From NCBI RefSeq assembly GCF_000821065.1, contig NZ_CDGG01000001.1, forward strand, positions 1,116,001-1,180,000: DNA of 64,000 bases. Reading direction: 5' to 3'. Origin of the DNA: Oceanobacillus oncorhynchi. GTDB lineage: Bacteria; Bacillota; Bacilli; Bacillales; Amphibacillaceae. This document shows positions 17,459 to 36,193 of this stretch, piece after piece; position 1 is the first letter of the stretch, and every line of letters starts with the position of its first letter. The notes beneath the pieces were generated by a model. The model ran no database searches and was not told where the DNA came from. It worked only from the letters and a program-made list of their open reading frames with translations. Position numbers and translations under genes: made by a program.

Positions 17459-17995
17459 ATGCGGAGAACGGAAAGGTATAAGGTTCATCATAAAGCAAAT
17501 TCTCTATGGCAGATGTACAGTACCGTATCTTTTTTTAAAATAGTGAAGAATTTTATTGTCATTCAGGTTGCGCGATATACCCCTTTTTTAAGAATGAAAA
17601 ATTGGCTGTATCGGCATCTGTTGCGCATGAAAGTAGGCGAACGTACATCCTTTGCTTTAATGGCGATGCCTGATTCCATGTTCCCTGAAAAAATCAAGGT
17701 TGGAGATAACAGCATTATCGGTTATAACACCACCATTTTAGCACATGAATATTTAATTACAGAATATCGTCTGGGCGAGGTGCATATTGGCAATGAGGTT
17801 ATGATCGGAGCCAATTCGACGATATTGCCGGGGGTGCATATCGGTGATGGAGCGATTGTCTCGGCTGCGACACTTGTTCATAAAGATGTCCCGGCTGGAG
17901 CTTTTGCAGGGGGGAATCCAATGCGGATTATTTATACCAAGGAAGAAATGGAATCGCGTCAATCACCGGATGGGCATGAAGGGAGGAATTCTTGA
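17459..17995 (+). CDS. yvoF: Hexapeptide-repeat acyltransferase YvoF
   Basis: A 178-residue left-handed beta-helix acyltransferase: hexapeptide repeats run through IKVGDNSIIGYNTTILAH and VMIGANSTILPGVHIGDGA. Such proteins acetylate sugars or other hydroxyl acceptors; the substrate is unknown. It lies two bases after ppaX and its stop overlaps the glpP start, as in the Bacillus cluster. Confidence 0.85.
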   Translation: MRRTERYKVHHKANSLWQMYSTVSFFKIVKNFIVIQVARYTPFLRMKNWLYRHLLRMKVGERTSFALMAMPDSMFPEKIKVGDNSIIGYNTTILAHEYLITEYRLGEVHIGNEVMIGANSTILPGVHIGDGAIVSAATLVHKDVPAGAFAGGNPMRIIYTKEEMESRQSPDGHEGRNS

Positions 17996-18528
17996 TGCAT
18001 GGGGTATTGCCTGCTGTACGGCGGATGAAGGACTTTGAGAAAGTATTGGAAAGTAATCACGAACATATTATTATTTTAGAATCCAGATTAGTTCAGCTCA
18101 AGAGTATGATTGATTACGCTCATCGCGCAAATAAAAAGGTATTAGTCCATTTTGATTTGATCCAAGGATTGAAAGCAGACGAGTACGGCATGGAATTTCT
18201 GCAGCGTGAAATAAAGCCGGATGGAATTTTAACAACTCGCGGCAATGTGATTGCCGCTGCTAAGAAGCATAAATTGCTGGCAATCCAGCGTGTTTTTATC
18301 TTGGACAGTGCGGCGTTAGAACAGAGCATTAAGCTTATTCAGCGATTTCATCCGGATTATGTTGAAATCTTGCCTGGACTGATGCCTGAAGTGATTGAAG
18401 AGATAACGGGAGAAATTGATATTCCTGTCATTGCCGGCGGTTTGATTAAAGAGGAAGAGCAGGTGAAAGCAGCATTAGATACTGGAGCGGTTGCTGTTTC
18501 TACTTCAAGCCGGAAGCTTTGGGATTAA
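17995..18528 (+). CDS. glpP: Glycerol uptake antiterminator GlpP
   Basis: RNA-binding regulator that, with glycerol 3-phosphate, prevents termination in glp leader mRNAs. It has 177 residues with the family's beta/alpha-barrel patterns: ILESRLVQLKSM, VLVHFDLIQGL, GILTTRGNVI, VEILPGLMPEV and VIAGGLI. GGGAGGA precedes the ATG at 17995. In Bacillus it directly precedes glpF-glpK-glpD; here glpK lies 14 kb away beyond an accessory block. A target leader is visible before glpD. Confidence 0.95.
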   Translation: MHGVLPAVRRMKDFEKVLESNHEHIIILESRLVQLKSMIDYAHRANKKVLVHFDLIQGLKADEYGMEFLQREIKPDGILTTRGNVIAAAKKHKLLAIQRVFILDSAALEQSIKLIQRFHPDYVEILPGLMPEVIEEITGEIDIPVIAGGLIKEEEQVKAALDTGAVAVSTSSRKLWD

Positions 18529-21047: not shown

Positions 21048-21600
21048 GTTTCAAGTTTTCACCATGCCAATAACATCAAGCCCTTGGTCTTTATCTCTAT
21101 CCGAGAGGCTGGTACGTGAATCAATAATCCATCAGCACATAAGAGGCATCCACGCTTGTTTTCATGGCACGCTCAATCTTACCAGGTATTTGTTCGGCTG
21201 TAGTTTGAAGTGCTTCTACTCTGCGTTTATAGCCTGAACTACGCTTGTCAATCTTTGATGAAATGTCGTTAATTTGGCTTTTCTTCGAGCTTAATAAAGA
21301 AAAGTCTACTGGAATGAAAGTGGCGCCATCGGGCCACCCAAGAGTAAGCATGCGAAATCCTTTATAAAAGCGCATTTTTTGGGATGAATGGTTAAAATAG
21401 CGAGCCAATAATTCAACCAATTTACTGTGGTTACGGTTATGCGAACAATCGTCTACAATCAATGTTTTCGGCCAATTATGATCGGTTAAGTTTGTTAACT
21501 TTTTGATGGTATGATTGCTCAGGTACAATAAAAATCTTCTCCCGGCAAAGGTGGACTTGTTTAAAAGTCGATAAACCGTATTCTTTATTTCATTTGTCAA
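21048..21600 (-). pseudogene. IS4-family transposase fragment, frameshifted
   Basis: The minus strand encodes IS4-type patterns: STFAGRRFLLYLS, IVDDCSHNRNHSKLVELLAR, GFRMLTLGWPDGATFIPVDFSLLSS and a run ending ASYVLMD. A stop follows, but after a shift the sequence continues (DSRTSLSDRDKDQGLDVIGMVK), giving the expected DS...GLDVIGMVK pattern of this family. Both the N-terminal start and the C-terminal half with the last catalytic residue are missing, and no terminal inverted repeats were found. Confidence 0.75.
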
Positions 21601-21795: not shown

Positions 21796-21825
21796 TTGCA
21801 TTTTTGAATACGTTTCCAATATAAT
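21796..21825 (+). promoter_or_regulatory. Promoter of the catabolic cluster with cre-like site
   Basis: TTGCAT (21796-21801) and TATAAT (21820-21825) are 18 bases apart. Between them TGAATACGTTTCCA (21805-21818) resembles the CcpA cre consensus with two mismatches around an intact CG core. Binding there would block transcription under catabolite repression. Confidence 0.6.
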
Positions 21826-21841
21826 ATGTTTAAAGATAGTG

Positions 21842-21857
21842 ATGTTTTTTAAAACAT
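21842..21857. promoter_or_regulatory. Palindrome downstream of the cluster promoter
   Basis: ATGTTTT-TT-AAAACAT has perfect 7-base arms and lies just after the expected transcription start. It is a candidate operator for the GntR-family regulator encoded at 28.4 kb. GATGTT half-sites flank it. Confidence 0.45.
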
Positions 21858-21980
21858 AATGATGTTAACTAGGGGGTAGATTTAAATTTGAGTAATTAAA
21901 AATGGATAACAAATAAAACAGTCGAGGGGCAGGACGTTTAAAAATACGAAATAACGTGTTATCTAAAAGGAGGAGCAAGG

Positions 21981-23747
21981 ATGGGGAGTATTGCATTTAC
22001 ATTAATAACATGTGCTTTCTTTATGGGACTGGTGGCTTGGTATTCTTATCATAAAACAAAGAATACAGTAAGTGATTCAACAGGTTATTTTTTAGCTGGC
22101 AGAGGATTGACCGGCGGGTTTATAGCCGGATCATTAATTTTAACAAACCTATCTGCCGAACAATTAATTGGTTTAAATGGACAAGGATATAGTGCAAACT
22201 TATCAAATATGGCCTGGGAAGTTACAGCTGGATTCTCTGTTATTATGCTGGCTCTTGTGTTACTTCCAAGATATTTGGGCGGAGCCTTCACAACACTTCC
22301 TGGGTTTATCAATAACCGATTTGACCAGGGTACGAGATTGTTGATTGTGTTATTGTTTATGCTGGGATATGGATTGATTACAATCCCTTCTGTACTTTAT
22401 TCGGGATCTATTGCGGTATTACAATTATTCGATATACCTAATATGCTTGGGATTAGTTTTGAGCAATCGATGTGGGTAGTAGTTTGGGTTATCGGTATTA
22501 TTGGTTCTATCTATGCTATTTTTGGCGGTTTAAAAGCTGTAGCTATTTCGGATACAATCAATGGAATTGGATTATTGATTGTTGGTTTGCTTGTACCAGT
22601 TCTGGGTTTCATTGCTCTAGGTGATGGTAATTTATTCGAAGGAATGAAAACGATTACGACAGAACATCCGGAAAAAATGAATGCTATCGGATCAAGTGAT
22701 GATGGAGTTCCCTTTGGAGCTATTTTTACAGGAATGCTATTTGCTAATTTATTTTATTGGGGCACAAATCAGTATGTTATTCAAAGAACACTGGGTGCAA
22801 AAAGTTTGGCAGAAGGTCAAAAAGGAGCGTTATTTACAGGTTTCCTAAAAATTTTAGTTCCATTCTTGATGATGATTCCAGGTATTATTGCTTTCCATTT
22901 ATATGGACCGGGGTTAGAGACAATGGATCTGGCATATCCAACATTAATCAGTGATATCTTCCCTACATTTTTAAATGGATTTTTCTTAGCTGTATTATTA
23001 GGAGCTGTTTTTTCCAGCTTTAACTCCTTATTAAATAGTGCTTCTACGTTGTTTGTATATGATGTCTATAAGGTAGTTATTAACAAAGATGCCAGTGATA
23101 GAAAAATGATACGTGTCAGTCAGTGGTTTGGAACGATTTTGGCATTAATAACGTTTTTTATTTCTCCGTTGTTAATCAATGCTCCTGACGGGTTATGGAC
23201 TCTGATTCGTCAGTTTACTGGATTTTTCAATATTCCAATTATTGCAATTGTGTTAGTGGGGATTTTTTCTAAACGTGTTCCTTCCATAGCGCCGAAAGTT
23301 ACGATTATACTCCATGTAATAGCATATTATTTCTTGATTTGGGGGTTGCCAACATTCTTTAATGTGGAATTAGCTATCAACTTCATTCACATTCAAGGGT
23401 TAATGTTTGTAATTGAAGTTGCGCTTATGCTTGTGATTGGAATGGTAAAGCCTTTAGAAGAGCCATTTGTATTTAAAGTTAACGCGCAGGTTAGCATGGT
23501 TCCTTGGAAATATGCATTGCCAGTAACGATTCTGTTATTAAGTGCAATGGTATTCAGTTATATTTTATTCTCGCCAATTGGCGTGGCTTCGCCGGAAAAT
23601 ATTATCTCAGGCTGGTTCTGGCCGGCAACGATTGCTCTTATCGTTGTAACGATCATTCTTTATCTTATTGCACTTAAATCGTGGAATAAAAAATATGCAG
23701 ACAAACTGTTAAGCAGTCATGAAGAGCAACTAAAGAAAGAAGCTTAG
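21981..23747 (+). CDS. Na+/solute symporter (SSS family, YidK-like)
   Basis: A 588-residue integral membrane transporter with about 14 helices. SSS signatures include GYFLAGRGLTGGFIAGSLILTNLSAEQLIGLNGQ at 35-70 and the sodium-site region GAVFSSFNSLLNSAST near 350. It resembles YidK-type sugar symporters and would import the cluster's substrate without phosphorylating it. AGGAGG precedes the ATG. It is the first gene of the cluster, behind a promoter with a cre-like site. Only the substrate is unknown. Confidence 0.88.
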   Translation: MGSIAFTLITCAFFMGLVAWYSYHKTKNTVSDSTGYFLAGRGLTGGFIAGSLILTNLSAEQLIGLNGQGYSANLSNMAWEVTAGFSVIMLALVLLPRYLGGAFTTLPGFINNRFDQGTRLLIVLLFMLGYGLITIPSVLYSGSIAVLQLFDIPNMLGISFEQSMWVVVWVIGIIGSIYAIFGGLKAVAISDTINGIGLLIVGLLVPVLGFIALGDGNLFEGMKTITTEHPEKMNAIGSSDDGVPFGAIFTGMLFANLFYWGTNQYVIQRTLGAKSLAEGQKGALFTGFLKILVPFLMMIPGIIAFHLYGPGLETMDLAYPTLISDIFPTFLNGFFLAVLLGAVFSSFNSLLNSASTLFVYDVYKVVINKDASDRKMIRVSQWFGTILALITFFISPLLINAPDGLWTLIRQFTGFFNIPIIAIVLVGIFSKRVPSIAPKVTIILHVIAYYFLIWGLPTFFNVELAINFIHIQGLMFVIEVALMLVIGMVKPLEEPFVFKVNAQVSMVPWKYALPVTILLLSAMVFSYILFSPIGVASPENIISGWFWPATIALIVVTIILYLIALKSWNKKYADKLLSSHEEQLKKEA

Positions 23748-23771
23748 CATTATATATGAGGGAGGTAGAGG

Positions 23772-24449
23772 ATGAATAATCTACTAAAGAAATTGCAAGA
23801 AAATAATTCAAATAAGACGATTCACTCTATTACAGCGGATAAATTTAAAAAATATGGCAGGATTCTAACGGGATTTGATTGGAGCGAATGGAATGAAACC
23901 ATGAAGCAGATAGAGATTCCTCAGGATGTAAATCAATATATTGCTTCTGATACAGCTTTAGAAAAAGCAAAGCTGACAGAAAAAATCCAAACAACCCTGT
24001 TTGGAGGAATGGAGATACAGGTTGGATATTGTAATGGTCCCAATAGTCATTTGAATGGGTTAGAATATCATAAAGGCAGTGAAATCAACATTGCTGTTAC
24101 CGATTTAATTCTTATTTTAGGACACACCGGAGATATTCACAAAAATAAGTATAAAACGGAAAATCTGGATATTTTCTATTTGCCTAAAGGAACAATGATA
24201 GAAATTTATCAGACTACATTGCATTTTGCACCTTGTAAAGTGAATGAGGAAGGTTTTAAGTGTATGGTTATCTTACCTAAAGGAACCAATGAACCTATTG
24301 ATTTCAGCAAATCAGTGATAACCGAAGAGGACAAACTGCTATTTATGAAAAATAAATGGCTGCTTGCACATCCAGATAGAACACCGCTTATTTCTAAAGG
24401 TGCCTATCCTGGAATTATTGGAGAAAATTTTAAATTAGAAACGATATAA
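23772..24449 (+). CDS. DUF4867-like protein, possible sugar isomerase or mutarotase
   Basis: A 225-residue cytosolic protein matching my recollection of DUF4867. The middle carries a cupin-like beta pattern with candidate metal ligands: GLEYHKGSEINI, LILGHTGDIH and TLHFAPCKV. GGGAGGTAG precedes the ATG, 24 bases after the symporter gene. The metal-site-like His/Glu residues and the context suggest an isomerase for the imported sugar; this is inference, as I know of no proven function for certain. Confidence 0.65.
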   Translation: MNNLLKKLQENNSNKTIHSITADKFKKYGRILTGFDWSEWNETMKQIEIPQDVNQYIASDTALEKAKLTEKIQTTLFGGMEIQVGYCNGPNSHLNGLEYHKGSEINIAVTDLILILGHTGDIHKNKYKTENLDIFYLPKGTMIEIYQTTLHFAPCKVNEEGFKCMVILPKGTNEPIDFSKSVITEEDKLLFMKNKWLLAHPDRTPLISKGAYPGIIGENFKLETI

Positions 24450-24480
24450 GATTTACTAAATTTAAAGGAGAGATGGAGAA

Positions 24481-25710
24481 ATGACAGTAGAAAGACAGGA
24501 ATTAGATATTTTAGCGGGTTTCGATAAATCAAAATTTGATTATTTACCAGGGGAAGATCGTTATCTGACCGTAGAGAATCAGCCTAAATTAAAATTCAAT
24601 TTAATAGGTACAGGGAATATTGGGCAGGAACATATGAAAGTAACCATACTGGAAGGCCGGGCAACCATTAATGGATTATATGATCCAAATGAAAAAAGTA
24701 TTGAGCAGGCGAAAGACGTATTTGTTAATGAATTGCAGGCTGGAGATATAAACGTATTTGAATCGTTAGAAGAAGCATGTAATGATCCGGAAGCGGATGC
24801 ATTGTTAATCTGTACGCCAAACTATACGCATATAGATGTTGTGCGGGTAGCGGCGAAATCGAAAAAACATATTTTTTTAGAAAAACCAATGACCACAAAT
24901 CTGGAAGATGCATACGAAATCATGGAGATTGCTAAAGATTACCCAAGTATTTTTCAAATAGGTTTGCAATACCGTTATAAACCAATCTATGTAGAAGCAA
25001 TTCATGAAGCACTGGAAAGAAAATCAGTTGGTGACATTAAAACGATTTCCATTATGGAGCATCGTGTACCTTTCCTTGATAAAGTAGGGCAATGGAATAA
25101 ATTCTCCGAAAAATCAGGGGGAACATTTGTAGAGAAATGCTGTCATTACTTCGATTTATTTAATTTATTTGCGCAATCGAAGCCTGTAGAAGTATATGCA
25201 ACAGGAAGCCAGGCAGTAAACTTTCAAACCTTCCAATATGAGGGGGAAAGTTCAGATATTATTGATAGCGGCTTTGTCATTGTAAAATATGAAAATGGTA
25301 TTCAATGTAATTTTAATTTATCTATGTTTTCACCTATGTTTTATGAAGAATTAGTGCTTTGTGGAAATGAAGGACGTCTGAAAGCTACTGAAACAGAACG
25401 GTTTGTACCATTAGAAGGACCAGATAACTATTTGGAGGTTATTCGTGCAGGAGGAAGTCCTTCGAAAACTTCTACGCCGGTTTATCCGACAGAGATTCAA
25501 AAAAGTGGACATGGCGGAGCAACTTATTATGAACATGTTTACTTTGTAGATAATATTTTAGGAAAAACAACTTCGACTGCCACTGTAGAGGAAGGTTTCT
25601 GGTCTATCGTTGTAGGATTGGCGGCAGAAGAATCATTAAGAACCGGTGAAAAAGTAATTATAAATGATTTTTTAGCTGCAAATCCGAAAGACACGGTGGT
25701 GAATAACTAA
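24481..25710 (+). CDS. Gfo/Idh/MocA-family NAD-dependent protein
   Basis: A 409-residue protein with an NAD-binding Rossmann fold (FNLIGTGNIGQEHM near 40), the EKP motif FLEKPMTTN near 138 and the histidine signature EKCCHYFDL near 222. The family includes sugar dehydrogenases, and also NAD-dependent glycosidases such as GH109 and the sulfoquinovosidases of GH188. Beside a kinase, an aldolase and an aldehyde dehydrogenase, it could release the free sugar from a glycoside. A plain dehydrogenase is the default alternative. AAAGGAG precedes the ATG. Confidence 0.8.
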   Translation: MTVERQELDILAGFDKSKFDYLPGEDRYLTVENQPKLKFNLIGTGNIGQEHMKVTILEGRATINGLYDPNEKSIEQAKDVFVNELQAGDINVFESLEEACNDPEADALLICTPNYTHIDVVRVAAKSKKHIFLEKPMTTNLEDAYEIMEIAKDYPSIFQIGLQYRYKPIYVEAIHEALERKSVGDIKTISIMEHRVPFLDKVGQWNKFSEKSGGTFVEKCCHYFDLFNLFAQSKPVEVYATGSQAVNFQTFQYEGESSDIIDSGFVIVKYENGIQCNFNLSMFSPMFYEELVLCGNEGRLKATETERFVPLEGPDNYLEVIRAGGSPSKTSTPVYPTEIQKSGHGGATYYEHVYFVDNILGKTTSTATVEEGFWSIVVGLAAEESLRTGEKVIINDFLAANPKDTVVNN

Positions 25711-25827
25711 GAAGAATCTGATAGAAAGAATCCTTCTATAAAGAAGGTGTTCAAAAAGCTGAGTTACTTTGAAGTTCAATTTCTAATTCAGTGTTTATAA
25801 AATGTTTTTGGAAAGAGGGGAAATTAC

Positions 25828-27267
25828 ATGGTTAATAAAATAGTATATATTCCAATTGGAAGAAAAACGTTTGATTTAAAAGCTGCTGAAGAGCAGAGGG
25901 AACAAAGCTCAAAACTCTTACGTGAATTGGCTGATACGTTAATAGAACCAAATGAGATTATTACGTCTACTGAAGATGTAATGGATTTTCTGAATACAGA
26001 GGATTTAAATGATATATCCTACGTTGTCTATCAACATGCAACTTTTGCTGATGCTGCTGCTGTGGAAGAACTGATTCAAGTAGTGAAAGCTCCGATTATA
26101 GTCTGGAGTGTCAGAGAGCCTAGTGTTGGCGGAAGATTACGGTTAAATTCTCTAACTGGAGGAAATGCAACCAGCCATCACCTAAAAGCTGCGAAACATC
26201 CGTATGTCTTTGTATTTGGCAATGCAGGAGAATTAAGAGTCAAAGAAATATTATCGAACTATCTAAATGGGGTTCAAGAAGAAAAGGAAAGAAACGTAAA
26301 AACAATTAATACCCTGATTGAAGTAAATACGAAACAAAAATCAGAAGTAGAAAAAGTTATTAAAGATCTTCAAAATATTAAAATTGGCGTTTTTGGAGAT
26401 CATCCACCAGGATTCTTTTTCTCTGGTACAAATGAAGAAAAACTTGGAGAACAGCTGGGGGTTTCGGTGAAATTTTTTGATTTAAATGAAGCGTTTGAGA
26501 AATGTGTGGAGCTCCCGAAGGAAAAATGGATTGGAGCCATTGAGAGAGCTGAGAAGCAGGTGATTGGATTAAACAGATCTGATGAAACAGTAGAACGATT
26601 TGCACAATTCACCACCTATGTCAAAGAGCAAATTGATCAAGAGGAACTTACAGGAACAGCAGTACGTTGTTACCCGGAATTTTTCAATAAATTAGGTGCT
26701 GCAGCCTGCTCAACACTATCACAATTTACTGAAGACGGTATCGTTTCAGCTTGTGAATCGGATATTCATGGGGCTATCTCGATGTCAATTCTGCAGCAGC
26801 TGTCAGGAGGAAGTGCTCCTTATTTAGGAGATATGGTACATGTTAATGAAGAAAGCAATTCTGTGGTATTTTGGCATTGCGGGGCAGGTGCATATTCTTT
26901 AGCAAATCCAAAAACTGGAGCACGTCCCGGGGTCCATCCAAATAGAAAACTGGGATTTACCATGGAATTTGGTTTAAAACCGGGAAAAGTAACTATTTTC
27001 AGAGTAAGCTATACACCGGAAGGATACCGCATGCTTATCATGTCAGGAGAAGCATTGGATACACCGCAGCGTTTTAATGGAACCTCTGTAGAAGTAGAAT
27101 TGGGAACAAACGTAACAGATACGCTTTATGATTTAATGGATGAAGGATTTGAACCACATTACGCCCTTGTATATGCAGATATAACGGATGAATTAATCGA
27201 GTTGGGCAAACAGCTGAATATTGAAACTGTGGTATATAACAGTCGTTCGGAAGAAGTTCTTTCATGA
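25828..27267 (+). CDS. L-fucose/L-arabinose isomerase-like protein
   Basis: A 479-residue protein with FucI/AraA-type architecture. The Mn-site signatures CESDIHGAIS (about 310-320) and FWHCGAGA (about 350) are intact. It probably interconverts an aldose and a ketose. A 117-base gap with no obvious terminator precedes it, and GAGGGG lies before the ATG. Its stop codon overlaps the next start (ATGA). With the DUF4867-like protein there are two candidate isomerases in this cluster. Confidence 0.78.
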   Translation: MVNKIVYIPIGRKTFDLKAAEEQREQSSKLLRELADTLIEPNEIITSTEDVMDFLNTEDLNDISYVVYQHATFADAAAVEELIQVVKAPIIVWSVREPSVGGRLRLNSLTGGNATSHHLKAAKHPYVFVFGNAGELRVKEILSNYLNGVQEEKERNVKTINTLIEVNTKQKSEVEKVIKDLQNIKIGVFGDHPPGFFFSGTNEEKLGEQLGVSVKFFDLNEAFEKCVELPKEKWIGAIERAEKQVIGLNRSDETVERFAQFTTYVKEQIDQEELTGTAVRCYPEFFNKLGAAACSTLSQFTEDGIVSACESDIHGAISMSILQQLSGGSAPYLGDMVHVNEESNSVVFWHCGAGAYSLANPKTGARPGVHPNRKLGFTMEFGLKPGKVTIFRVSYTPEGYRMLIMSGEALDTPQRFNGTSVEVELGTNVTDTLYDLMDEGFEPHYALVYADITDELIELGKQLNIETVVYNSRSEEVLS

Positions 27268-28436
27268 AAAAGGTTGTTATAGGACAGGCAGGCGGTCCAA
27301 CTTCTGTTATCAATGCAACATTAGCGGGTTTTGTAGAGGAAGTGATGGATGAATACAACCTTACCTTTTTACAAAACGGCTACGAAGGCCTGGTTTACGG
27401 AAATTTTTTGGATGGAACAGATGAAATAAACAGCTGGATTGTAGAAAACAAACATGTGCCGGGAGCCTGCCTTGGGTCTGGACGATTTCCTTTGGAAGCT
27501 GAGCATATCGAACAATGTGTTCAGCAATTAAGAAACATACAGGCAGATGCGCTTGTCGTAATCGGTGGTAACGGCACAATGGAAGCTTTAAGTAAAATTG
27601 AACAGGAAGCGGCAAATACAGGGTATGAATTACAAGTTATCGGGTTACCGAAAACAGTGGATAATGATTTGGGAGGAACGGATCATGCGCCGGGTTTTGG
27701 CAGTGCGGTAAGGTATGTTGCTCAATCAACCTTAGATATCAGCAGAGATCTTTATTCCATGAGAAATTTTGAACAGGTCCGAATCTTAGAAACGATGGGT
27801 AGAAATGCCGGCTGGCTGGCGCTGGCTACTGGATTTCTTCGCAGATATGAAGAGGACGGTCCGCATATCATCTTAATTCCGGAAAGACCTGTAAAAAAAG
27901 AAATATTCTTAAAAGAAGTTGATAAAATAATTCAGAAGAATGGTTGTGCTGTAATCGTAGTGAGTGAGGGGGTGAAATGGGAAGGAGCAGATCAAATTGA
28001 GAAGGAAGTTGTTGATGGCAGAAAGATACTTGGCGGGATTTCCTCAGAAATCGAGTTTTTAATAAAAAAGGAATTAAAGATAATGGCAAGAGCAGAGCTG
28101 CTGGGGATGAACCAGCGCAGTTCTTCCATGTCTGTTTCACCAGTGGACTATAAGGAAGCATCTCAAGCTGGAATCTGTGGGGGCAAATGGTTAAGAGAAG
28201 GCAAAAATAAAATCATGGTTTCCCTACAAAGAACGAAACAATTCGACTATAATATAAATAAAATACCAGTCGATTTGAAGGAAGTAGTTCAAGAGGGAGA
28301 AAGGTTGCTGCCGGATTATTTTATTGATAATCATCAGGCATATTATGAGTGGTTGACTCCATTAATTGGAGAAGACCTTCCTTCTTATCCTTCACCGATT
28401 CCTAGGAGAGATAGTTATGTCAGGGAGCCGTTTTGA
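27264..28436 (+). CDS. PfkA-family 6-phosphofructokinase-like sugar kinase
   Basis: A 390-residue kinase of the PFK superfamily. GQAGGPTSVINAT binds nucleotide at the N-terminus. The segment corresponding to GGDGS of E. coli PFK reads GGNGT: glycine at position 104 suggests ATP use, while the Mg-binding Asp103 is Asn. PKTVDNDL carries the lysine found in PPi-type and atypical ATP-type enzymes, and the catalytic TVDND aspartates are intact. MGRNAGWLA and LGMNQRSS are the other family boxes. It would phosphorylate C1 of a 6-anionic ketohexose. It overlaps both neighbouring genes, so it is tightly coupled. Confidence 0.85.
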   Translation: MKKVVIGQAGGPTSVINATLAGFVEEVMDEYNLTFLQNGYEGLVYGNFLDGTDEINSWIVENKHVPGACLGSGRFPLEAEHIEQCVQQLRNIQADALVVIGGNGTMEALSKIEQEAANTGYELQVIGLPKTVDNDLGGTDHAPGFGSAVRYVAQSTLDISRDLYSMRNFEQVRILETMGRNAGWLALATGFLRRYEEDGPHIILIPERPVKKEIFLKEVDKIIQKNGCAVIVVSEGVKWEGADQIEKEVVDGRKILGGISSEIEFLIKKELKIMARAELLGMNQRSSSMSVSPVDYKEASQAGICGGKWLREGKNKIMVSLQRTKQFDYNINKIPVDLKEVVQEGERLLPDYFIDNHQAYYEWLTPLIGEDLPSYPSPIPRRDSYVREPF

Positions 28437-29151
28437 GCCTAAAAAAGGCGAGGCATTGTATTTACAAGTGAAGAAAGAATTATATAAACGTATTCAGGAA
28501 GGTATCTGGAAGGCGGATACGCTTATTCCTACAGAGCAAGAATTAATTTCAGAATTTGATGTCAGCCGAACGACCATAAGACAAGCAATAAACTTGCTTG
28601 TTCAGGATAATTTACTTGAAAAGAAACAGGGACGAGGGACTGTTGTCCGGCCGCAAAATCTGGTAGGGCACTTGGGCAAGCTAAAAGGGTTTACAGAAGA
28701 AGCAAGAGAAAGAGGACAAATCCCTAGAGCAAAGGTTTTACGAAGCGAATTTAAATCAACGTTTTTTTTCGAAAAGGATATATTAGAGGTTTCTGAAAAA
28801 GATCCTATCCTGCTGGTGGAAAGAATCAGGCTGGCAGATGATATTCCAATAGCGATTGAAAGATCCTGCTGGCCAAAGGACATTGGAGAATTATTGCAGA
28901 CACATAATCTGAATGAAGCGCATTACTATGAAATTTTAGAGCAGCATAATATTTATTTGAAGCGTGCAAAAGAAACCATCAGAGCAATTAACGCAACAAT
29001 GGATGAAGCGGATTATTTAGGGATTCGTCCGGGGGAAGCTCTGTTAGAAATGACAAAAGTCAGCTATGGAATGGACGATCGTCCAATTGAATATACCAAA
29101 ACAAGATATCGAAGCGATAAATATCAATATAGTATTGAATTAAAAAGATAG
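28417..29151 (+). CDS. GntR-family regulator (HutC subfamily)
   Basis: A 244-residue transcription factor. The winged helix (about 10-75) shows IPTEQELISEFDVSRTTIRQA, and a UTRA effector domain of the HutC type fills about 95-240 (LLVERIRLADDIPIAIERSCW). It probably represses the surrounding cluster, with the substrate or a phosphorylated intermediate as inducer. The ATG at 28417 follows AGGAGAG and overlaps the kinase gene by 20 bases. Confidence 0.85.
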   Translation: MSGSRFEPKKGEALYLQVKKELYKRIQEGIWKADTLIPTEQELISEFDVSRTTIRQAINLLVQDNLLEKKQGRGTVVRPQNLVGHLGKLKGFTEEARERGQIPRAKVLRSEFKSTFFFEKDILEVSEKDPILLVERIRLADDIPIAIERSCWPKDIGELLQTHNLNEAHYYEILEQHNIYLKRAKETIRAINATMDEADYLGIRPGEALLEMTKVSYGMDDRPIEYTKTRYRSDKYQYSIELKR

Positions 29152-29165
29152 GGAGTGGACACAGC

Positions 29166-30029
29166 ATGTCATTTATAAACGGAAAGGTAATGCTTCAGCA
29201 TGCTTATGAGAATGGATATGGCGTTGGAGCTTTCAGTGCGCATAATGCAGAAACCATTTTAGGGATTTTAGAGGCGGCAGAAGAAGAACAGGCGCCAATT
29301 ATGATCCAAGTGGGGCAAAAGGTTATTCAGACATTAGGAATGGAATCAATGAAAGCATTGATAGATATCTATGCAAAACAATTTACAATTCCGGTCGCTA
29401 TCCACTTGGATCACAGCAGGAGTTTTGAGCAAACAATGCAGGCTGTTCAGCTTGGCTTTCAATCTGTCATGTTTGATGGTTCTGCAAGATCTTTTGAAGA
29501 AAACAGCAGCATTACACGTGATGTCGTTCAGGTAGCAAAAGCGCTTCATATCGGTTCTGAAGGAGAAATTGGCAAAATAGGCGGAACAGAAGATGATATT
29601 TCTGTCGATGAAAAAGATGCCCTTATTACAACGACAGAAGAAGCAGTTGCCTTTGTAGAAGCAACAGACGTAGATTATTTAGCTGTTTCTATTGGTACTG
29701 CTCATGGGCTGTATAAACAAACACCTCAATTACGATTTGAGAGATTAGATGCTATTTCAAAGGCTGTTCAACGTCCCGTAGTGCTCCATGGAGGCTCAGA
29801 TGTTCCTGATGAACAGGTTCAAAAAGCAATCCAATTAGGTGTTGCCAAAATTAATGTAGATACAGAATTGCGTCAGGCGTTTACAAATGGTGTAAAAGAA
29901 ACTTTTAAACAGAATCCGGATGAAATTGTTTTAGCCAATTCATTAGGAAACGGAAAAGATTATTTAAAGAAAAAAGTTCAGGAAAAAATAAAGGTATTTG
30001 GAAGCAAAGGAAAAGCAAAGGATTTATAA
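29166..30029 (+). CDS. Class II (zinc) ketose-bisphosphate aldolase
   Basis: A 287-residue FbaA/GatY-family aldolase that cleaves a ketose 1-phosphate or bisphosphate to DHAP and an aldehyde. HLDHS near 80 carries the catalytic Asp and a zinc His; GSEGEIGKIGG, GTAHGLY and HGGSD supply the remaining zinc and phosphate ligands, and NVDTELR is intact. HGGSD replaces the usual HGGSG. The DHAP phosphate site is conserved; specificity for the other half cannot be read from the sequence. GGGAG precedes the ATG. Confidence 0.88.
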   Translation: MSFINGKVMLQHAYENGYGVGAFSAHNAETILGILEAAEEEQAPIMIQVGQKVIQTLGMESMKALIDIYAKQFTIPVAIHLDHSRSFEQTMQAVQLGFQSVMFDGSARSFEENSSITRDVVQVAKALHIGSEGEIGKIGGTEDDISVDEKDALITTTEEAVAFVEATDVDYLAVSIGTAHGLYKQTPQLRFERLDAISKAVQRPVVLHGGSDVPDEQVQKAIQLGVAKINVDTELRQAFTNGVKETFKQNPDEIVLANSLGNGKDYLKKKVQEKIKVFGSKGKAKDL

Positions 30030-30072
30030 GAAAACAAAAGATAGTAACCTTATGTTATGAAAGGATGATGTT

Positions 30073-31506
30073 ATGATGAATAATGTATTGTTAAAAAATA
30101 TCTATGGTCTTTTCATTGATGGAAAATGGACAGAGAGGGATAGAAAGCTTCCGGTTTTCAATAAATATTCACAAGAAGTGATTGCTGAAATTTCTGTAGC
30201 GGAAGAAAGCGATGTAACTGCAAGTGCTGCAGCAGCTAAAAAGGCTTTAAAAAAACCATTTCCACCTTACGAGCGCTTTCATGTTTTAAAAAAAGCTTCT
30301 GAATTATTATTGGAACGAAAAGAGAGCGTTGCTAATGTCCTTGTTCAAGAAGTTGGGAAGCCTTTAACAGAATCAATTGGTGAAGTGGAAAGAGCGGCGT
30401 TAACATTGGAAGTTTCGGCAGAAGAAGCAAAGCGTATCCATGGAGAGGGAGTGCCAATAGAGTCAGCACCGGGTTCGGAAAATAGGAAAGCTTTGACAAT
30501 AAAAGCACCAGTTGGGGTCGTAGCTGCCATCACACCATTTAACGTTCCTTTAAATCTAGTTTGTCATAAAGTTGGGCCAGGTCTTGCTGCGGGAAATAGT
30601 GTGATATTAAAACCAGCTGAAGAAACATCTATATCCGCGCTGTTGCTGGCGGAAATATTTGAAGAGGCTGGTCTTCCTGTCGGACGTTTAAACGTGTTAA
30701 CTGGAGAGGGAGCAGAAATCGGTGAGTACCTGACCTCCAATCAAGAAATAAACATGTACACCTTTACCGGCAGCCCGAGCGTAGGTCAAATTATACGTGA
30801 AAATACTGGAATAAGAAAAGTAGCATTAGAACTGGGGAATAATTCAGCAACGATTGTTCATCGAGATGCTGATATTGAGATCAGTGCAGCAGCGGCTGCG
30901 CAAAAAAGCTTTAATAATGCCGGTCAGGTTTGTATTTCGGTTCAACGTGTTTTTGTGCATGAAGCCATTTATGAATCCTTTTTGGAGAAAATGGTTGAAA
31001 CAACAAAAGCTCTCAAGGTAGGTGACCCTGCGGATGCTTCAACAAATATTGGTCCAATGATTGCCGAAAAAGAAGCTGTCCGTGTTGAAAATTGGGTGGA
31101 TGAAGCGATAAGCCAAGGTGCTAAGCTGCAGGTTGGCGGGAAACGCGACGGGGTTTTTTATCAGCCGACTATTTTGACAAATGTAAATCAGGAAATGAAA
31201 GTATGCAGAAATGAAGTCTTTGGACCAGTAGTTGCGGTAGATACGTATCATGATGAAGATGAAGTGATTGAAAAAGTAAATGATTCCGAGTATGGACTGC
31301 AGGCAGGGTTATTTACAAATGATTTAAGCTTTGTGATGAAAGCAGCCGAGAAGATTGAAGTAGGCGGATTGATTATTAATGATACTTCTGGTTACAGAGT
31401 AGACCACATGCCTTATGGCGGTGTGAAAAAGAGCGGCACCGGTAAAGAAGGTCCGAAGTATGCGATGGAAGAAATGACAGAGGAAAAATTAATCGTATTT
31501 CAATAA
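30073..31506 (+). CDS. NAD(P)-dependent aldehyde dehydrogenase
   Basis: A 477-residue ALDH with the catalytic Cys in NNAGQVCIS near 290, the general base Glu in ALELGNNSA near 255 and the cofactor loop TFTGSPSVG. The N-terminal PVGVVAAITPFNVPLN block resembles the lactaldehyde, phosphonoacetaldehyde and sulfolactaldehyde dehydrogenase branch. Following an aldolase, it should oxidise the non-DHAP aldehyde to an acid. Last gene before a strong hairpin. AAGGATGATG precedes the start. Confidence 0.85.
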   Translation: MMNNVLLKNIYGLFIDGKWTERDRKLPVFNKYSQEVIAEISVAEESDVTASAAAAKKALKKPFPPYERFHVLKKASELLLERKESVANVLVQEVGKPLTESIGEVERAALTLEVSAEEAKRIHGEGVPIESAPGSENRKALTIKAPVGVVAAITPFNVPLNLVCHKVGPGLAAGNSVILKPAEETSISALLLAEIFEEAGLPVGRLNVLTGEGAEIGEYLTSNQEINMYTFTGSPSVGQIIRENTGIRKVALELGNNSATIVHRDADIEISAAAAAQKSFNNAGQVCISVQRVFVHEAIYESFLEKMVETTKALKVGDPADASTNIGPMIAEKEAVRVENWVDEAISQGAKLQVGGKRDGVFYQPTILTNVNQEMKVCRNEVFGPVVAVDTYHDEDEVIEKVNDSEYGLQAGLFTNDLSFVMKAAEKIEVGGLIINDTSGYRVDHMPYGGVKKSGTGKEGPKYAMEEMTEEKLIVFQ

Positions 31507-31523
31507 TTACGTTAACGCAAGAC

Positions 31524-31562
31524 GGATAACAGGGCTATTCTAAGCGGATAGCCCTGTTATCC
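31524..31562 (+). other. Perfect 15-bp hairpin without T run
   Basis: GGATAACAGGGCTAT (31524-31538) and its exact complement (31548-31562) surround a 9-base loop. No T tract follows on either strand, so it may be a processing or stability element between the dehydrogenase and exporter cistrons rather than a terminator. Confidence 0.6.
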
Positions 31563-31592
31563 ATCAATAAATAAAATAAGCAAGGTGATCAA

Positions 31593-32492
31593 GTGTTTAT
31601 TCTATCAATTATGCTACCTATTTTCTTTGTGTTTGTTGTCGGCTACATTGCGCAGTCCTTTCTCAAGTTAGAAACTGTCATGATATCGAGATTGGCGATT
31701 TACATACTTGTTCCCTTTTTAGTTTTTCGTACCTTTTATTTACAGACGATTGATAGTTCCTTTATGTATTTTATTATTTTTTTACTTGGACTTTGCTTTT
31801 TGAGTATTTTATTCATTACTTTATTTACAAAGGTCTTGAAATATTCTGAGGAACAACGTTGTGGATTAATATTATCCAGTGCGTTTATGAATAATGGGAA
31901 TTATGGTACGCCGCTAGTTCTCTTTTTGTTTGGGCCAGAAGGGATGAAGGTAGCCATTGTATTAATGGTTTTACAGCAATTACTAATGAGCACATTAGGA
32001 GTCTATTATGCGGCGAAAGGGAGTCCATTTAATGTAGGGAGCATAGATGCAGCAGGACAGATTTTGCGCATGCCGATGATTTACGGGGCAACACTTGGAA
32101 TCGTATTTAACTGGTTGAATATTCCCTTGGGAACTTTAATGAAAGGGATTGATTTTATGGCAGATGCTGCAATTCCAGTGATTATGATTGCCTTAGGAAT
32201 GCAACTAGCAAACATGACAATCAGAAAAGTGGATTGGAAATTACTTTCATTCAGTCTTTCTATGCGGCTGATGCTGTCTCCTTTATTAGCATTATTTATC
32301 GTATGGCAGTTGCCGCTTGATGAATTGACGAAGCAAATAATGGTTATTGTAGCTGCTACACCAACTGCTGCAAATACGACAATGTATGCTATCCAGTTTC
32401 GGGTACAAGAGAATAATGTGTCTGCTGCAACCTTGATATCAACAGTGCTGAGTCTGGTTACTGTTCCTGTTGTCATTTATCTAATGACCTAA
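31593..32492 (+). CDS. AEC-family (auxin efflux carrier-like) exporter
   Basis: A 299-residue membrane protein with about ten helices and the MNNGNYGTPL box near 95, characteristic of AEC transporters, which export organic acids such as malate. After an aldehyde dehydrogenase, it may release the acid end product. The start is GTG with AAGGTGAT upstream, 86 bases after the dehydrogenase gene. Confidence 0.8.
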   Translation: MFILSIMLPIFFVFVVGYIAQSFLKLETVMISRLAIYILVPFLVFRTFYLQTIDSSFMYFIIFLLGLCFLSILFITLFTKVLKYSEEQRCGLILSSAFMNNGNYGTPLVLFLFGPEGMKVAIVLMVLQQLLMSTLGVYYAAKGSPFNVGSIDAAGQILRMPMIYGATLGIVFNWLNIPLGTLMKGIDFMADAAIPVIMIALGMQLANMTIRKVDWKLLSFSLSMRLMLSPLLALFIVWQLPLDELTKQIMVIVAATPTAANTTMYAIQFRVQENNVSAATLISTVLSLVTVPVVIYLMT

Positions 32493-32689: not shown

Positions 32690-34222
<1,533 letters not shown>

Positions 34223-34397: not shown

Positions 34398-34531
34398 ATT
34401 GTGCTGGAAATGAAGCCGCCCGCCAATGTTCGTCGGGCAGATTCATGCTTTTCATCTGTATTTGATGAATAACCGTCTTCAATAAAGGGAATAAAAACAA
34501 TAGATCATTACTGGGAGTGGGAGTGGAAATA

Positions 34532-36193
34532 ATGCATAATTTTTCAAGTAAAGAACGTAAAGAAACACTAGGGGCCTTAGAAAGTAATCAACTGGATTTA
34601 TTAGTTATCGGCGGCGGTATTACCGGATCAGGAATTTCTCTGGATGCTGCGACAAGAGGCCTGCGTACGGGCCTGATTGAAATGCAGGATTTTGCAGCCG
34701 GTACTTCAAGCCGTTCTACCAAATTGGTGCATGGCGGCCTGCGCTATCTGCAGCAATTTGAAGTGAAGATGGTAGCAGAGGTAGGAAAAGAACGTGCGGT
34801 TGTTTATGAAAATGGCCCGCATGTGACGACACCAGAATGGATGCTGCTGCCATTCCATAAAGGAAGTAATTTAGGACCGTTTACATCAAGTATTGGTTTG
34901 CGTGTATATGACTTTTTAGCAGGGGTAAAAAAATCAGAGCGTCGGGAGATGTTAAAGCCGGCAGAGGTATTAGAACGTGAGCCGCTTGTAAAAAAAGAGG
35001 AGCTTCGCGGCGGAGGCTTTTATGTAGAATATAAAACCGATGATGCACGTTTAACGATTGAAGTGCTTAAAAAAGCTGTGGAAAACGGCGTGAAAGCAGT
35101 CAACTACACCAAAGCAGTTGAATTCATCTATGAAGAAGGCAAAGTAGTCGGCGTTGTAGCCGAGGATCAAATCAGCAAAGAAAAGCATCCAATCTATGCA
35201 AAGAAAATTATTAACGCTGGCGGGCCTTGGGTGGATGATGTCCGTGAATTAGATGGTTCCAAAAAAGGAAAAACCCTTCATTTAACAAAAGGTGTCCATC
35301 TTGTATTCGATGAATCGGTCTTCCCGTTGAAGCAAGCAGTGTATTTCGATACACCGGATGGCCGGATGGTTTTTGCTATTCCGCGTGACGGCAAAACATA
35401 TGTAGGTACAACCGATACCGATTATAAAGGGGATATTGCGCATCCGACGATGACAGAGAAGGACCGGGATTATATTTTAGATGCCATTAATTATATGTTC
35501 CCATCTGTTGGTATTGATGCAAGTAAAGTCGAATCAAGCTGGGCCGGCATCCGTCCGTTAATTGCGGAAGAAGGGGCAAGCAGTCCAAGTGAAATTTCCC
35601 GTAAGGATGAGATTTTCCAATCAGATTCCGGGTTACTTTCTATGGCAGGCGGTAAATTAACTGGTTACCGCAAAATGGGCGAGCATGTTGTCAATATGGT
35701 AGCAAAACAGTTAAAAGAAGAAGAAGGCATCCTATATACAGAGAGCCAAACGAAGCACCTGCCTATTTCCGGCGGAGAAGTCGGCGGATCCAAAGGCTTC
35801 AAGAATTTTAAAGCAGAAAAAGTCAAAGAAGGCAGCAGCCTTGGGTTATCAGAAAATGAAGCAGCAGAGCTGACACAGCGTTATGGCGCAAATGTAGATA
35901 AAATTTTTACACTATATAAAGAGAATAAAGAAGCAGCTGCAAAAGAAAACATCGAACCGGCAGTATTTGCACAGGTAATATATGCAATAAATGAAGAAAT
36001 GGCATATAAAGCAGTAGACTTCTTCATTCGCCGCTCCGGTGCATTATTCTTCAACCGTCCATGGGTGGAGACGCATATGGATACTGTCCTGCCATTTATG
36101 GAAAAAGAGCTCGGCTGGACCAGGGAAGAAGCAGCAGTCTATCGAAAAGAACTCGAGCAGCTATTATACGAAACAACGCATCCAGATAAATAA
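34532..36193 (+). CDS. glpD: Aerobic glycerol-3-phosphate dehydrogenase
   Basis: Membrane-associated FAD enzyme that oxidises glycerol 3-phosphate to DHAP and feeds electrons to quinone. It has 553 residues with the FAD motif VIGGGITGSGISLDAATRG near 22-40, TSSRSTKLVHGGLRYL, and TDTDYKGD. The ATG at 34532 follows GGGAG at eight bases and is preferred over an in-frame GTG upstream. It has its own promoter and antiterminator leader. Confidence 0.96.
   Translation: MHNFSSKERKETLGALESNQLDLLVIGGGITGSGISLDAATRGLRTGLIEMQDFAAGTSSRSTKLVHGGLRYLQQFEVKMVAEVGKERAVVYENGPHVTTPEWMLLPFHKGSNLGPFTSSIGLRVYDFLAGVKKSERREMLKPAEVLEREPLVKKEELRGGGFYVEYKTDDARLTIEVLKKAVENGVKAVNYTKAVEFIYEEGKVVGVVAEDQISKEKHPIYAKKIINAGGPWVDDVRELDGSKKGKTLHLTKGVHLVFDESVFPLKQAVYFDTPDGRMVFAIPRDGKTYVGTTDTDYKGDIAHPTMTEKDRDYILDAINYMFPSVGIDASKVESSWAGIRPLIAEEGASSPSEISRKDEIFQSDSGLLSMAGGKLTGYRKMGEHVVNMVAKQLKEEEGILYTESQTKHLPISGGEVGGSKGFKNFKAEKVKEGSSLGLSENEAAELTQRYGANVDKIFTLYKENKEAAAKENIEPAVFAQVIYAINEEMAYKAVDFFIRRSGALFFNRPWVETHMDTVLPFMEKELGWTREEAAVYRKELEQLLYETTHPDK

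What the first reader, a model, noticed from the sequence alone, without database searches (positions are those of the whole stretch)
21981..32492. Candidate sulfoglycolysis-type catabolic cluster
Seen: symporter, DUF4867-like protein, Gfo/Idh/MocA protein, FucI-like isomerase, PfkA-type kinase, GntR regulator, class II aldolase, aldehyde dehydrogenase and AEC exporter, all on one strand with short gaps. There is no PTS, hexokinase or fructokinase. A PFK-type enzyme needs a ketohexose already negatively charged at C6. If the sugar enters unphosphorylated, a sulfonate at C6 (sulfoquinovose) would satisfy this. The order import, isomerise, 1-phosphorylate, cleave to DHAP plus sulfolactaldehyde, oxidise to sulfolactate and export then uses every gene. 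Variants of the sulfo-EMP pathway with PfkA-type kinases and class II aldolases are known. Another 6-modified or deoxy sugar remains possible.
Basis: partly seen in the sequence, partly recalled or inferred. Interest (0 to 1): 0.82.

Follow-up and report, generated by a model that had tools for sequence, protein, structure and literature searches.

The report
Operon for eating plant sulfo-sugar
This stretch of a Bacillus-like bacterium's genome most likely encodes a known kind of pathway that takes up sulfoquinovose, the sulfur-carrying sugar of plant sulfolipids, burns half of it and discards the rest as sulfolactate; here it carries a newer type of sugar-releasing enzyme and sits inside the glycerol-use genes.

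Summary
All nine genes exist at 21981-32492. The isomerase passes the curated sulfoquinovose isomerase model (749.9 bits, cut-off 700). The aldolase's four best solved structures are sulfofructose-phosphate aldolases (62-63% identity; no other listed row exceeds 42%). The DUF4867 protein matches B. megaterium SqvB. The aldehyde dehydrogenase has the His/Asn residues reported for B. urumqiensis sulfolactaldehyde dehydrogenase. Isomerase, kinase, regulator, aldolase and dehydrogenase keep the same order in Alkalicoccus (Bacillus) urumqiensis, a sulfo-EMP2 reference species.

It stands where A. urumqiensis has a GH31 enzyme, so sulfoquinovosyl glycerol is the likely substrate.

Extra: here and in one sister species the operon lies between glpP and glpK, where three of four relatives examined have glpF. 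The other twelve clusters compared show no glp genes nearby, so any glycerol link is lineage-specific.

The genome lacks the PF04295 lyase domain; sulfolactate is probably exported, perhaps by the AEC protein (inferred). New member of a known kind; nothing was tested biochemically.

The parts
21804..21818 (+). cre-like site TTGAATACGTTTCCA (one mismatch to the CcpA consensus, which is recalled) between a weak -35 (TTGCAT 21796-21801) and a -10 (TATAAT 21820-21825)
   Evidence: Read by eye; block conserved in L003. The generic promoter scan did not list this promoter, its -35 being weak.
21839..21862 (+). candidate GntR operator, palindrome ATGTTT-N4-AAACAT with conserved flanks, just downstream of the -10
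   Evidence: palindrome kept in L003 although three of the four central bases differ. 1 match in the window against a mean of 0.02 in 100 shuffles, but the pattern was written from this very site and its relative, so that figure is not an independent test. The more distant loci show other palindromes.
21981..23747 (+). SSS-family sodium:solute symporter; proposed importer of sulfoquinovose or its glyceryl glycoside
   Evidence: Pfam SSF 162.6 bits; an 81% identical copy lies in the GH31-type cluster L043 of the genome of Virgibacillus sp. YIM 98842; a solute-binding protein of ABC type takes its place in 11 of 14 clusters. Substrate inferred.
23772..24449 (+). SqvB/SftX, DUF4867 cupin; role unsettled in the literature (mutarotase or ring-opening proposed)
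   Evidence: DUF4867 270.5 bits; best PDB match 9gyy, 4.8e-77, which is B. megaterium SqvB; metal ligands E98, H100, E104, H151 invariant in 5 sequences.
24481..25710 (+). GH188 NAD-dependent sulfoquinovosidase (SqgA); by Pfam only a Gfo/Idh/MocA protein
   Evidence: Best PDB matches 8zn9 (3.1e-63), 8qc2 (3.6e-63), 8qc3 (3e-61); next 6.8e-21. 8qc2 and 8qc3 are named GH188 SqgA in PMC10755693; no call names the family of 8zn9. K135, Y164, R195, L199, K201, E218, H222, H344 correspond to the contact residues listed there and are invariant in 7 sequences.
25828..27267 (+). SqvD/SftI sulfoquinovose isomerase (FucI-related), with an insert of about 26 residues also present in L003
   Evidence: NF048012 749.9 bits against cut-off 700; 53% identical to the A. 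urumqiensis enzyme; insert seen.
27264..28436 (+). SqiK sulfofructose 1-kinase (PFK family)
   Evidence: 46% identical to the A. urumqiensis kinase; GGNGTM, NFEQVR and LGMNQR shared by all 8 cluster kinases aligned, with two positions changed against the genome's own PfkA.
28417..29151 (+). GntR/UTRA regulator, overlapping the end of the kinase gene
   Evidence: UTRA 115.2 and GntR 67.8 bits; 55-94% identical copies in 12 of the 13 other clusters (the stretch of the thirteenth, L041, ends just past its GH188 gene).
29166..30029 (+). SqiA class II sulfofructose-1-phosphate aldolase
30073..31506 (+). SlaB sulfolactaldehyde dehydrogenase
   Evidence: 60% identical to the A. urumqiensis enzyme; F156-N157-V158, H165 and N281 (6 before C287) match the B. 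megaterium/B. urumqiensis pattern of PMC10599462. None of the 25 curated models shown (of 45 that match) passes its cut-off.
31593..32492 (+). AEC-family permease; proposed sulfolactate exporter
   Evidence: Mem_trans 110 bits; a 44% identical Mem_trans protein lies downstream of the ALDH gene in A. urumqiensis. Substrate inferred only.
17992..18528 (+). glpP, glycerol-3-phosphate responsive antiterminator, left of the insertion
   Evidence: G3P_antiterm 229.7 bits.
32720..34222 (+). glpK glycerol kinase, right neighbour
   Evidence: FGGY_N/FGGY_C; second, 88% identical copy at G000:C1:2118197. The name glpK is from recall and similarity, not from a curated model.
34517..36193 (+). glpD glycerol-3-phosphate dehydrogenase
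   Evidence: DAO and DAO_C domains.

Best explanation
A sulfo-EMP2 operon for growth on sulfoquinovose (SQ) and its glycosides, chiefly sulfoquinovosyl glycerol (SQGro). The Na+ symporter imports SQ or SQGro; GH188 SqgA uses a bound NAD+ to cut SQGro into SQ and glycerol; SqvD isomerises SQ to sulfofructose (perhaps helped by the DUF4867 cupin SqvB); SqiK phosphorylates it at C1; SqiA cleaves sulfofructose-1-phosphate to DHAP and sulfolactaldehyde; SlaB oxidises sulfolactaldehyde to sulfolactate, yielding NAD(P)H; the AEC protein exports sulfolactate. The GntR protein represses the operon until substrate appears. Glycerol can go to the adjacent GlpK and GlpD, so both halves meet at DHAP. Shown by sequence: identity of the isomerase, aldolase and GH188 protein, relationship and synteny of the kinase and dehydrogenase with the reference species, and gene order. 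Inferred: transport substrates, operator, repression, glycerol coupling, and all activities in this organism.
For: Isomerase over the curated SftI cut-off. Aldolase nearest to sulfofructose-phosphate aldolases by sequence and fold. GH188 match with eight of eight mapped contact residues. DUF4867 = SqvB with its four metal ligands. SlaB residues of the B. urumqiensis type. Order isomerase-kinase-GntR-aldolase-ALDH the same as in A. urumqiensis, where sulfo-EMP2 was described. A. urumqiensis has a GH31 protein where the window has GH188; 12 of 14 clusters carry GH188, 2 of 14 GH31, none both or neither within the stretches held. Own genome: no GH31 match over cut-off (one below it, 21.8 bits against 23.5), no PF04295 domain.
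Against: No biochemical or growth data for this organism. The kinase is only 46% identical to the reference, and curated models and solved structures place it nearest PPi-dependent phosphofructokinases. Five of six genomes of genus g18 (Lentibacillus, by two named members) keep isomerase, kinase, GntR and GH188 but lack a SqiA-type aldolase, so these genes can occur without the rest. AEC of 44% identity or more is in only 3 of 14 clusters. Glp genes flank only 2 of 14 clusters.
Confidence: 0.93

Rival explanations
1. The operon degrades a different C6-sulfonated sugar (for example sulfofucose, via sulfotagatose) with the same enzyme families.
For: Enzymes of these families can tolerate epimers (recalled). 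The isomerase, GH188 and aldolase tests had SQ-type references only.
Against: Isomerase passes the SQ isomerase equivalog model, and the GH188 residues that contact the SQ hydroxyls are kept. The one described sulfofucose pathway (PMC12421959, passages) uses a dehydrogenase, lactonase, dehydratase and an aldolase of another family, with no isomerase activity detected.
Confidence: 0.03
2. An ordinary phosphosugar pathway (tagatose- or fructose-bisphosphate type) in which the PFK-like and KbaY-like enzymes act on phosphorylated sugars.
For: NCBIfam places the kinase over the cut-off of a PPi-PFK subfamily, and the aldolase over the cut-off of the general ketose-bisphosphate aldolase subfamily TIGR00167 (293.2 vs 215.6); the specific FBA and tagatose models are below cut-off.
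Against: No PTS or hexokinase among the nine proteins to supply the phosphate. Aldolase 62-63% identical to sulfofructose-phosphate aldolases against at most 42% for other listed structures. In the kinase, the residues aligned with PfkA Arg162 and His249 (recalled numbers) are Gln171 and Met282 in all 8 cluster kinases, not in the genome's own PfkA. SQ isomerase and a sulfoquinovosidase lie in the same operon.
Confidence: 0.02
3. A sulfo-EMP2 operon as described, but the glycerol-locus position is chance, with no functional coupling to glpK-glpD; free SQ may be the main substrate.
For: The placement is seen in the window and one sister species only, probably one event; 12 of 12 other clusters checked show no close glpP, glpK or glpD match within the stretches held.
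Against: GH188 contact residues are conserved, an SQase is present in 14 of 14 clusters, and glpF is missing from the site, its usual occupant in 3 of 4 relatives.
Confidence: 0.4

Closest known systems
Sulfo-EMP2 pathway of Bacillus (Alkalicoccus) urumqiensis (SqvB, SqvD, SqiK, SqiA, SLA dehydrogenase)
   Same: Related isomerase (53%), kinase (46%), GntR (62%), aldolase (67%), ALDH (60%), DUF4867 (43%), AEC (44%); isomerase-kinase-GntR-aldolase-ALDH in identical order.
   Different: GH188 instead of GH31 at the same place; SSS symporter instead of an ABC-type solute-binding protein; inserted in the glycerol locus.
GH188 NAD+-dependent sulfoquinovosidases (FlSqgA 8qc2, ArSqgA 8qc3)
   Same: Sequence match at 3.6e-63 and 3e-61; eight mapped contact residues kept, including the sulfonate Arg, Leu and Lys.
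   Different: The passages read tie GH188 to sulfo-EMP, -ED, -SFT, -SMO and -SDO clusters; the term sulfo-EMP2 does not occur in that text, though its 'sulfo-EMP' may cover it. Here GH188 goes with the sulfo-EMP2 enzyme set.
Sulfo-TAL/sulfo-SFT clusters of B. megaterium and E. rectale
   Same: Share the SqvD-type isomerase, the DUF4867 protein and, in Bacillus, the SlaB-type dehydrogenase.
   Different: No transaldolase among the nine proteins; cleavage by kinase plus class II aldolase instead.
Sulfo-EMP of E. coli (YihS, YihV, YihT, YihU)
   Same: Same intermediates.
   Different: Non-orthologous enzymes, and here oxidation to sulfolactate rather than reduction to DHPS.

Membership tests
Sulfo-EMP2 pathway | SqvD-type (FucI-related) sulfoquinovose isomerase | tested here: met
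   NF048012 749.9 bits, cut-off 700.
Sulfo-EMP2 pathway | PFK-family (PF00365) sulfofructose kinase SqiK | tested here: met
   PF00365 180 bits; 46% identical and syntenic with the A. urumqiensis gene. Substrate not tested.
Sulfo-EMP2 pathway | Class II (PF01116) SFP aldolase SqiA | tested here: met
   PF01116 324 bits; best PDB rows are the Yersinia aldovae and Hafnia paralvei SqiA structures.
Sulfo-EMP2 pathway | SLA dehydrogenase giving sulfolactate, as in aerobic Bacilli | tested here: met
   60% identical to the A. urumqiensis ALDH; His165/Asn281 pattern. Activity not tested.
Sulfo-EMP2 pathway | Growth on sulfoquinovose with sulfolactate release | not testable with these tools
   Needs culture.
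GH188 (SqgA) | Sequence membership | tested here: met
   8qc2 and 8qc3 at 3.6e-63 and 3e-61; first relative outside the top three 6.8e-21.
GH188 (SqgA) | Sulfonate-binding Arg166, Leu170 (backbone), Lys172 and contact residues Lys107, Tyr136, Glu189, His193, His321 (ArSqgA numbers) | tested here: met
   R195, L199, K201, K135, Y164, E218, H222, H344, mapped by hand from the alignment to 8qc2 (constant offset assumed between ArSqgA and that chain) and invariant in 7 sequences.
GH188 (SqgA) | NAD+-dependent hydrolysis of SQ glycosides | not testable with these tools
   Needs enzyme assay.
DUF4867 (SqvB/SftX) | Cupin with 2His-2Glu metal site | tested here: met
   9gyy match; E98, H100, E104, H151 invariant in 5, matching Glu97, His99, Glu103, His150 of the paper.
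Sulfo-TAL pathway | Sulfofructose transaldolase (PF00923) in the cluster | tested here: not met
   None of the nine proteins matches it.
Sulfolactate mineralisation (SuyAB) | SuyB-type lyase domain (PF04295; its link to SuyB is recalled) in the genome | tested here: not met
   0 of 1 genome; the same search finds the domain in 5 of 14 control genomes.

The most novel reading that the evidence does not exclude
The operon is a dedicated sulfoquinovosyl-glycerol unit built into the glycerol regulon: the SSS symporter imports intact SQGro, cytoplasmic GH188 splits it, GlpK-GlpD and SqiK-SqiA turn the two halves into DHAP, glpF has been displaced because glycerol now arises inside the cell, GlpP-dependent control may couple the two, and the AEC protein is a sulfolactate exporter (the paper searches showed no paper in their listings that joins an AEC transporter to sulfolactate).
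Probability: 0.3. Interest if true: 0.5.

Novelty: new member of a known kind. Interest (0 to 1): 0.36.

Why it matters
[quoted passage not shown] This case adds an Oceanobacillus-type genome. In 12 of 14 clusters examined the sulfoquinovosidase is GH188 rather than GH31; sulfo-EMP2 was found by searching around GH31-type YihQ genes, an approach that would miss those 12. The sample was drawn by likeness to the window's isomerase and from its own family, so the proportion may not hold elsewhere. The placement between glpP and glpK gives a testable link between SQ and glycerol use, and the AEC protein is a candidate sulfolactate exporter.

Tried and rejected
[quoted passage not shown] Sulfofucose reading: enzymes differ. 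Ordinary tagatose/FBP reading: rejected on aldolase and isomerase evidence. 'Gfo/Idh/MocA as an inositol dehydrogenase': that model is far below cut-off (140.8 against 355), and the top three solved relatives score 130 bits or more above the next.

Operator: the palindrome AAAGGTNCGTACCTTT seen upstream of the Salibacterium and Lentibacillus clusters is not in the window's promoter; the single match with 3 mismatches at 25397 is within chance (1 against a mean of 1.84). Promoter and terminator scans gave no excess over shuffles (39 found against 39.3; 9 against 8.5), so promoter and operator are read by eye and from conservation with one close relative. Horizontal transfer: cluster G+C (0.380) is like the window's (0.390), so composition says nothing. 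No match in plasmids by near search.

Kinase residues: the genome's second PFK-like protein (L014) also departs from PfkA at the same two positions, so the change is compatible with, but not proof of, sulfonate specificity. PfkA residue numbers and the rule that Gly at position 104 means ATP rather than PPi are recalled.

Generality of the glycerol link: tested and not found; 12 of 12 other stretches checked (L004-L009, L041, L043, L044, L045, L047, L049) have no close glpP, glpK or glpD match.

Genus g18 (Lentibacillus): a search for class I aldolases (PF01791) did not show which enzyme replaces SqiA there.

Papers: PMC9594981, PMC11968277, PMC13219744, PMC10755693, PMC10599462, PMC12890257, PMC12421959 and PMC11659671 were seen as passages; PMC8873060 as abstract and section list; PMC11465081 as part 1 of 2 of the whole text. 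The primary sulfo-EMP2 paper (Liu et al. 2021) and the class II SFP aldolase paper (Sharma et al. 2023) were not read; they are known here through reviews and PDB titles.
Full report
Observation. Spacing is -20 to 117 bases. The window is bases 1116001-1180000 of a 4.6 Mb single-contig genome. The closest named relative found is Oceanobacillus sp. CFH 90083, whose nine-gene cluster is 80-94% identical in the same order.

Isomerase. It scores 749.9 bits against the curated NCBIfam equivalog for sulfoquinovose isomerase SftI, cut-off 700. The A. urumqiensis isomerase scores 702.5 on the same model. No PDB sequence matches the window isomerase at 0.001.

Kinase. It is 46% identical to the PFK-family gene in the same position in A. 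urumqiensis. Curated models put it over the cut-off of a PPi-PFK subfamily, and its best solved relatives are PPi-dependent phosphofructokinases. All 8 cluster kinases aligned share GGNGTM, NFEQVR and LGMNQR. Against the genome's own PfkA, the residues aligned with Arg162 and His249, which hold the 6-phosphate of fructose-6-phosphate (recalled), are Gln171 and Met282, while Arg243 and Arg252 remain as Arg276 and Arg285. This fits a singly charged 6-substituent. The genome's second PFK-like protein also differs at these two positions, so the point is suggestive only. Gly104 is kept, which predicts ATP rather than PPi (recalled rule).

Dehydrogenase. PMC10599462 (passages) reports that B. megaterium and B. 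urumqiensis SLA dehydrogenases carry His and Asn where the Rhizobium enzyme has Arg171 and Arg289, a Phe-Asn-Val tripeptide in B. megaterium, and no second cysteine. The window enzyme has F156-N157-V158, H165, N281 and Cys-Ile-Ser at the nucleophile, as do the five other cluster enzymes aligned, one of them the A. urumqiensis enzyme.

The unexplained gene. The Gfo/Idh/MocA protein matches 8zn9, 8qc2 and 8qc3 at 3.1e-63 to 3e-61, against 6.8e-21 for the next relative. 8qc2 and 8qc3 are GH188 sulfoquinovosidases (PMC10755693, passages); the family of 8zn9 is not named in any call. That paper lists Arg166, Lys172 and the Leu170 amide for the sulfonate, and Lys107, Tyr136, Glu189, His193 and His321 for the sugar. 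By the alignment these are R195, K201, L199, K135, Y164, E218, H222 and H344, all invariant in seven cluster proteins. A. urumqiensis has at this place a 671-residue protein with GH31 domains that scores 999.6 bits on NF007746 (that model being the YihQ type is recalled) and no GH188 match in the stretch held. The window genome has one GH31 match, below cut-off (21.8 against 23.5 bits).

DUF4867. The closest solved structure is 9gyy, B. megaterium SqvB, whose 2His-2Glu metal site is kept here as E98, H100, E104 and H151. Its function is unsettled: mutarotase and kinase assays of its E. rectale relative were negative (PMC11968277, passages).

Comparison of clusters. One search examined 18 stretches. 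That leaves 13, or 14 with the window. GH188 is in 12 of 14 and GH31 in 2 of 14; none has both or neither within the stretch. The SSS symporter is in 3 of 14; a solute-binding protein like that of L009, beside two binding-protein-dependent permease genes there, is in the other 11. DUF4867 is in 7 of 14, SqiA in 9 of 14, a SlaB of 59% identity or more in 6 of 14, GntR in 13 of 14, and AEC of 44% or more in 3 of 14. Virgibacillus sp. YIM 98842 holds both forms on one contig. So isomerase and kinase are constant while sulfoquinovosidase and importer are exchanged. The sample was chosen by likeness to the window's isomerase and from its family.

Rarity. Within the genus, 2 of 28 genomes have the isomerase over cut-off (3 of 28 at E up to 0.001); within the family, 10 of 159 (25 of 159 at E up to 0.001). 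Two of 14 control genomes gave matches below cut-off.

Place in the chromosome. Left of the operon lie genes that I name ppaX and yvoF from recall (HAD and hexapeptide families) and glpP, then an ORF without a Pfam match, an alpha/beta hydrolase and a transposase fragment; right lie glpK, glpD, a TPR gene and a trxB-like gene. Four relatives without the cluster were looked at. In G008, G027 and G004 the order is ppaX-yvoF-glpP-glpK-glpD-TPR-trxB with a MIP-family gene (glpF) between glpP and glpK; in the fourth, G022, the glpK stretch holds none of these neighbours. In CFH 90083 the operon sits between glpP and glpK too. The only MIP gene of the window's genome lies about a megabase away beside a second glpK. 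The operon therefore occupies the glpF position. GH188 would release glycerol inside the cell, so the arrangement makes sense; but this is inference from two sister species, and 12 of 12 other clusters checked have no such neighbours.

Fate of sulfolactate. The genome has no PF04295 domain, the domain of SuyB-type lyases (recalled), in a search that rang in 5 of 14 controls. Sulfolactate is then probably a waste product. An AEC permease follows the ALDH gene here and in A. urumqiensis (44%). The listing of a search for AEC or auxin efflux carrier together with sulfolactate or sulfoquinovose showed no paper joining them in this sense (20 of 37 papers listed).

Regulation. A -10 with a cre-like site, followed by the palindrome ATGTTT-N4-AAACAT, is conserved between the window and L003, where three of the four central bases differ. 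This is the best candidate for the GntR operator, on the evidence of two close relatives.

Verdict. The pathway is known (PMC9594981, PMC12890257, passages), so this is a new member of a known kind. Its modest interest lies in the GH188 exchange, the glycerol-locus placement and the exporter candidate.

Noticed in passing
L051:4116-11104 and L071:12252-18988 (G026, same genus): A decayed copy of the operon: AEC, ALDH, aldolase, GntR and kinase remain (79-94% identical), but symporter, DUF4867 and GH188 are not found in the stretch and the isomerase is a short remnant near a DDE transposase gene. On the AEC side lie Dak1, Dak2, triosephosphate isomerase and glpK genes.
   Followed up: partly
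L042 and L043 (G156, Virgibacillus sp. YIM 98842): Two sulfo-EMP2 clusters on one contig, one with GH188 and an ABC-type solute-binding protein, one with GH31 and an SSS symporter 81% identical to the window's.
   Followed up: partly
L006, L009, L044, L045, L047 (genus g18, Lentibacillus by two named members): Five of six genomes keep isomerase, kinase, GntR, GH188 and an ABC-type solute-binding protein but have no SqiA-type aldolase (none at 1e-40 in four, 36% identity in one) and no close SlaB (best 46-48%). How they would cleave sulfofructose phosphate is unexplained; a class I aldolase search was inconclusive.
   Followed up: partly
upstream of the clusters in L004, L005, L006, L009: A shared palindrome close to AAAGGTACGTACCTTT near a cre-like AAAGCGCT site, perhaps the GntR operator of that subgroup; different from the window's palindrome although the GntR proteins are about 63% identical.
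   Followed up: partly
window 25828-27267, about residues 148-175 of the isomerase: An insert of about 26 residues present in the window and CFH 90083 isomerases and absent from the A. urumqiensis and L. persicus ones shown; the curated model matches in two stretches.
   Followed up: no
window 21121-21600 (-): Fragment of a DDE_5 endonuclease (transposase-like) gene just upstream of the operon.
   Followed up: no
L003:16999-18927: In the sister species an extra alpha/beta hydrolase of 642 residues sits between the AEC gene and glpK; whether it acts on sulfolipid is untested.
   Followed up: no
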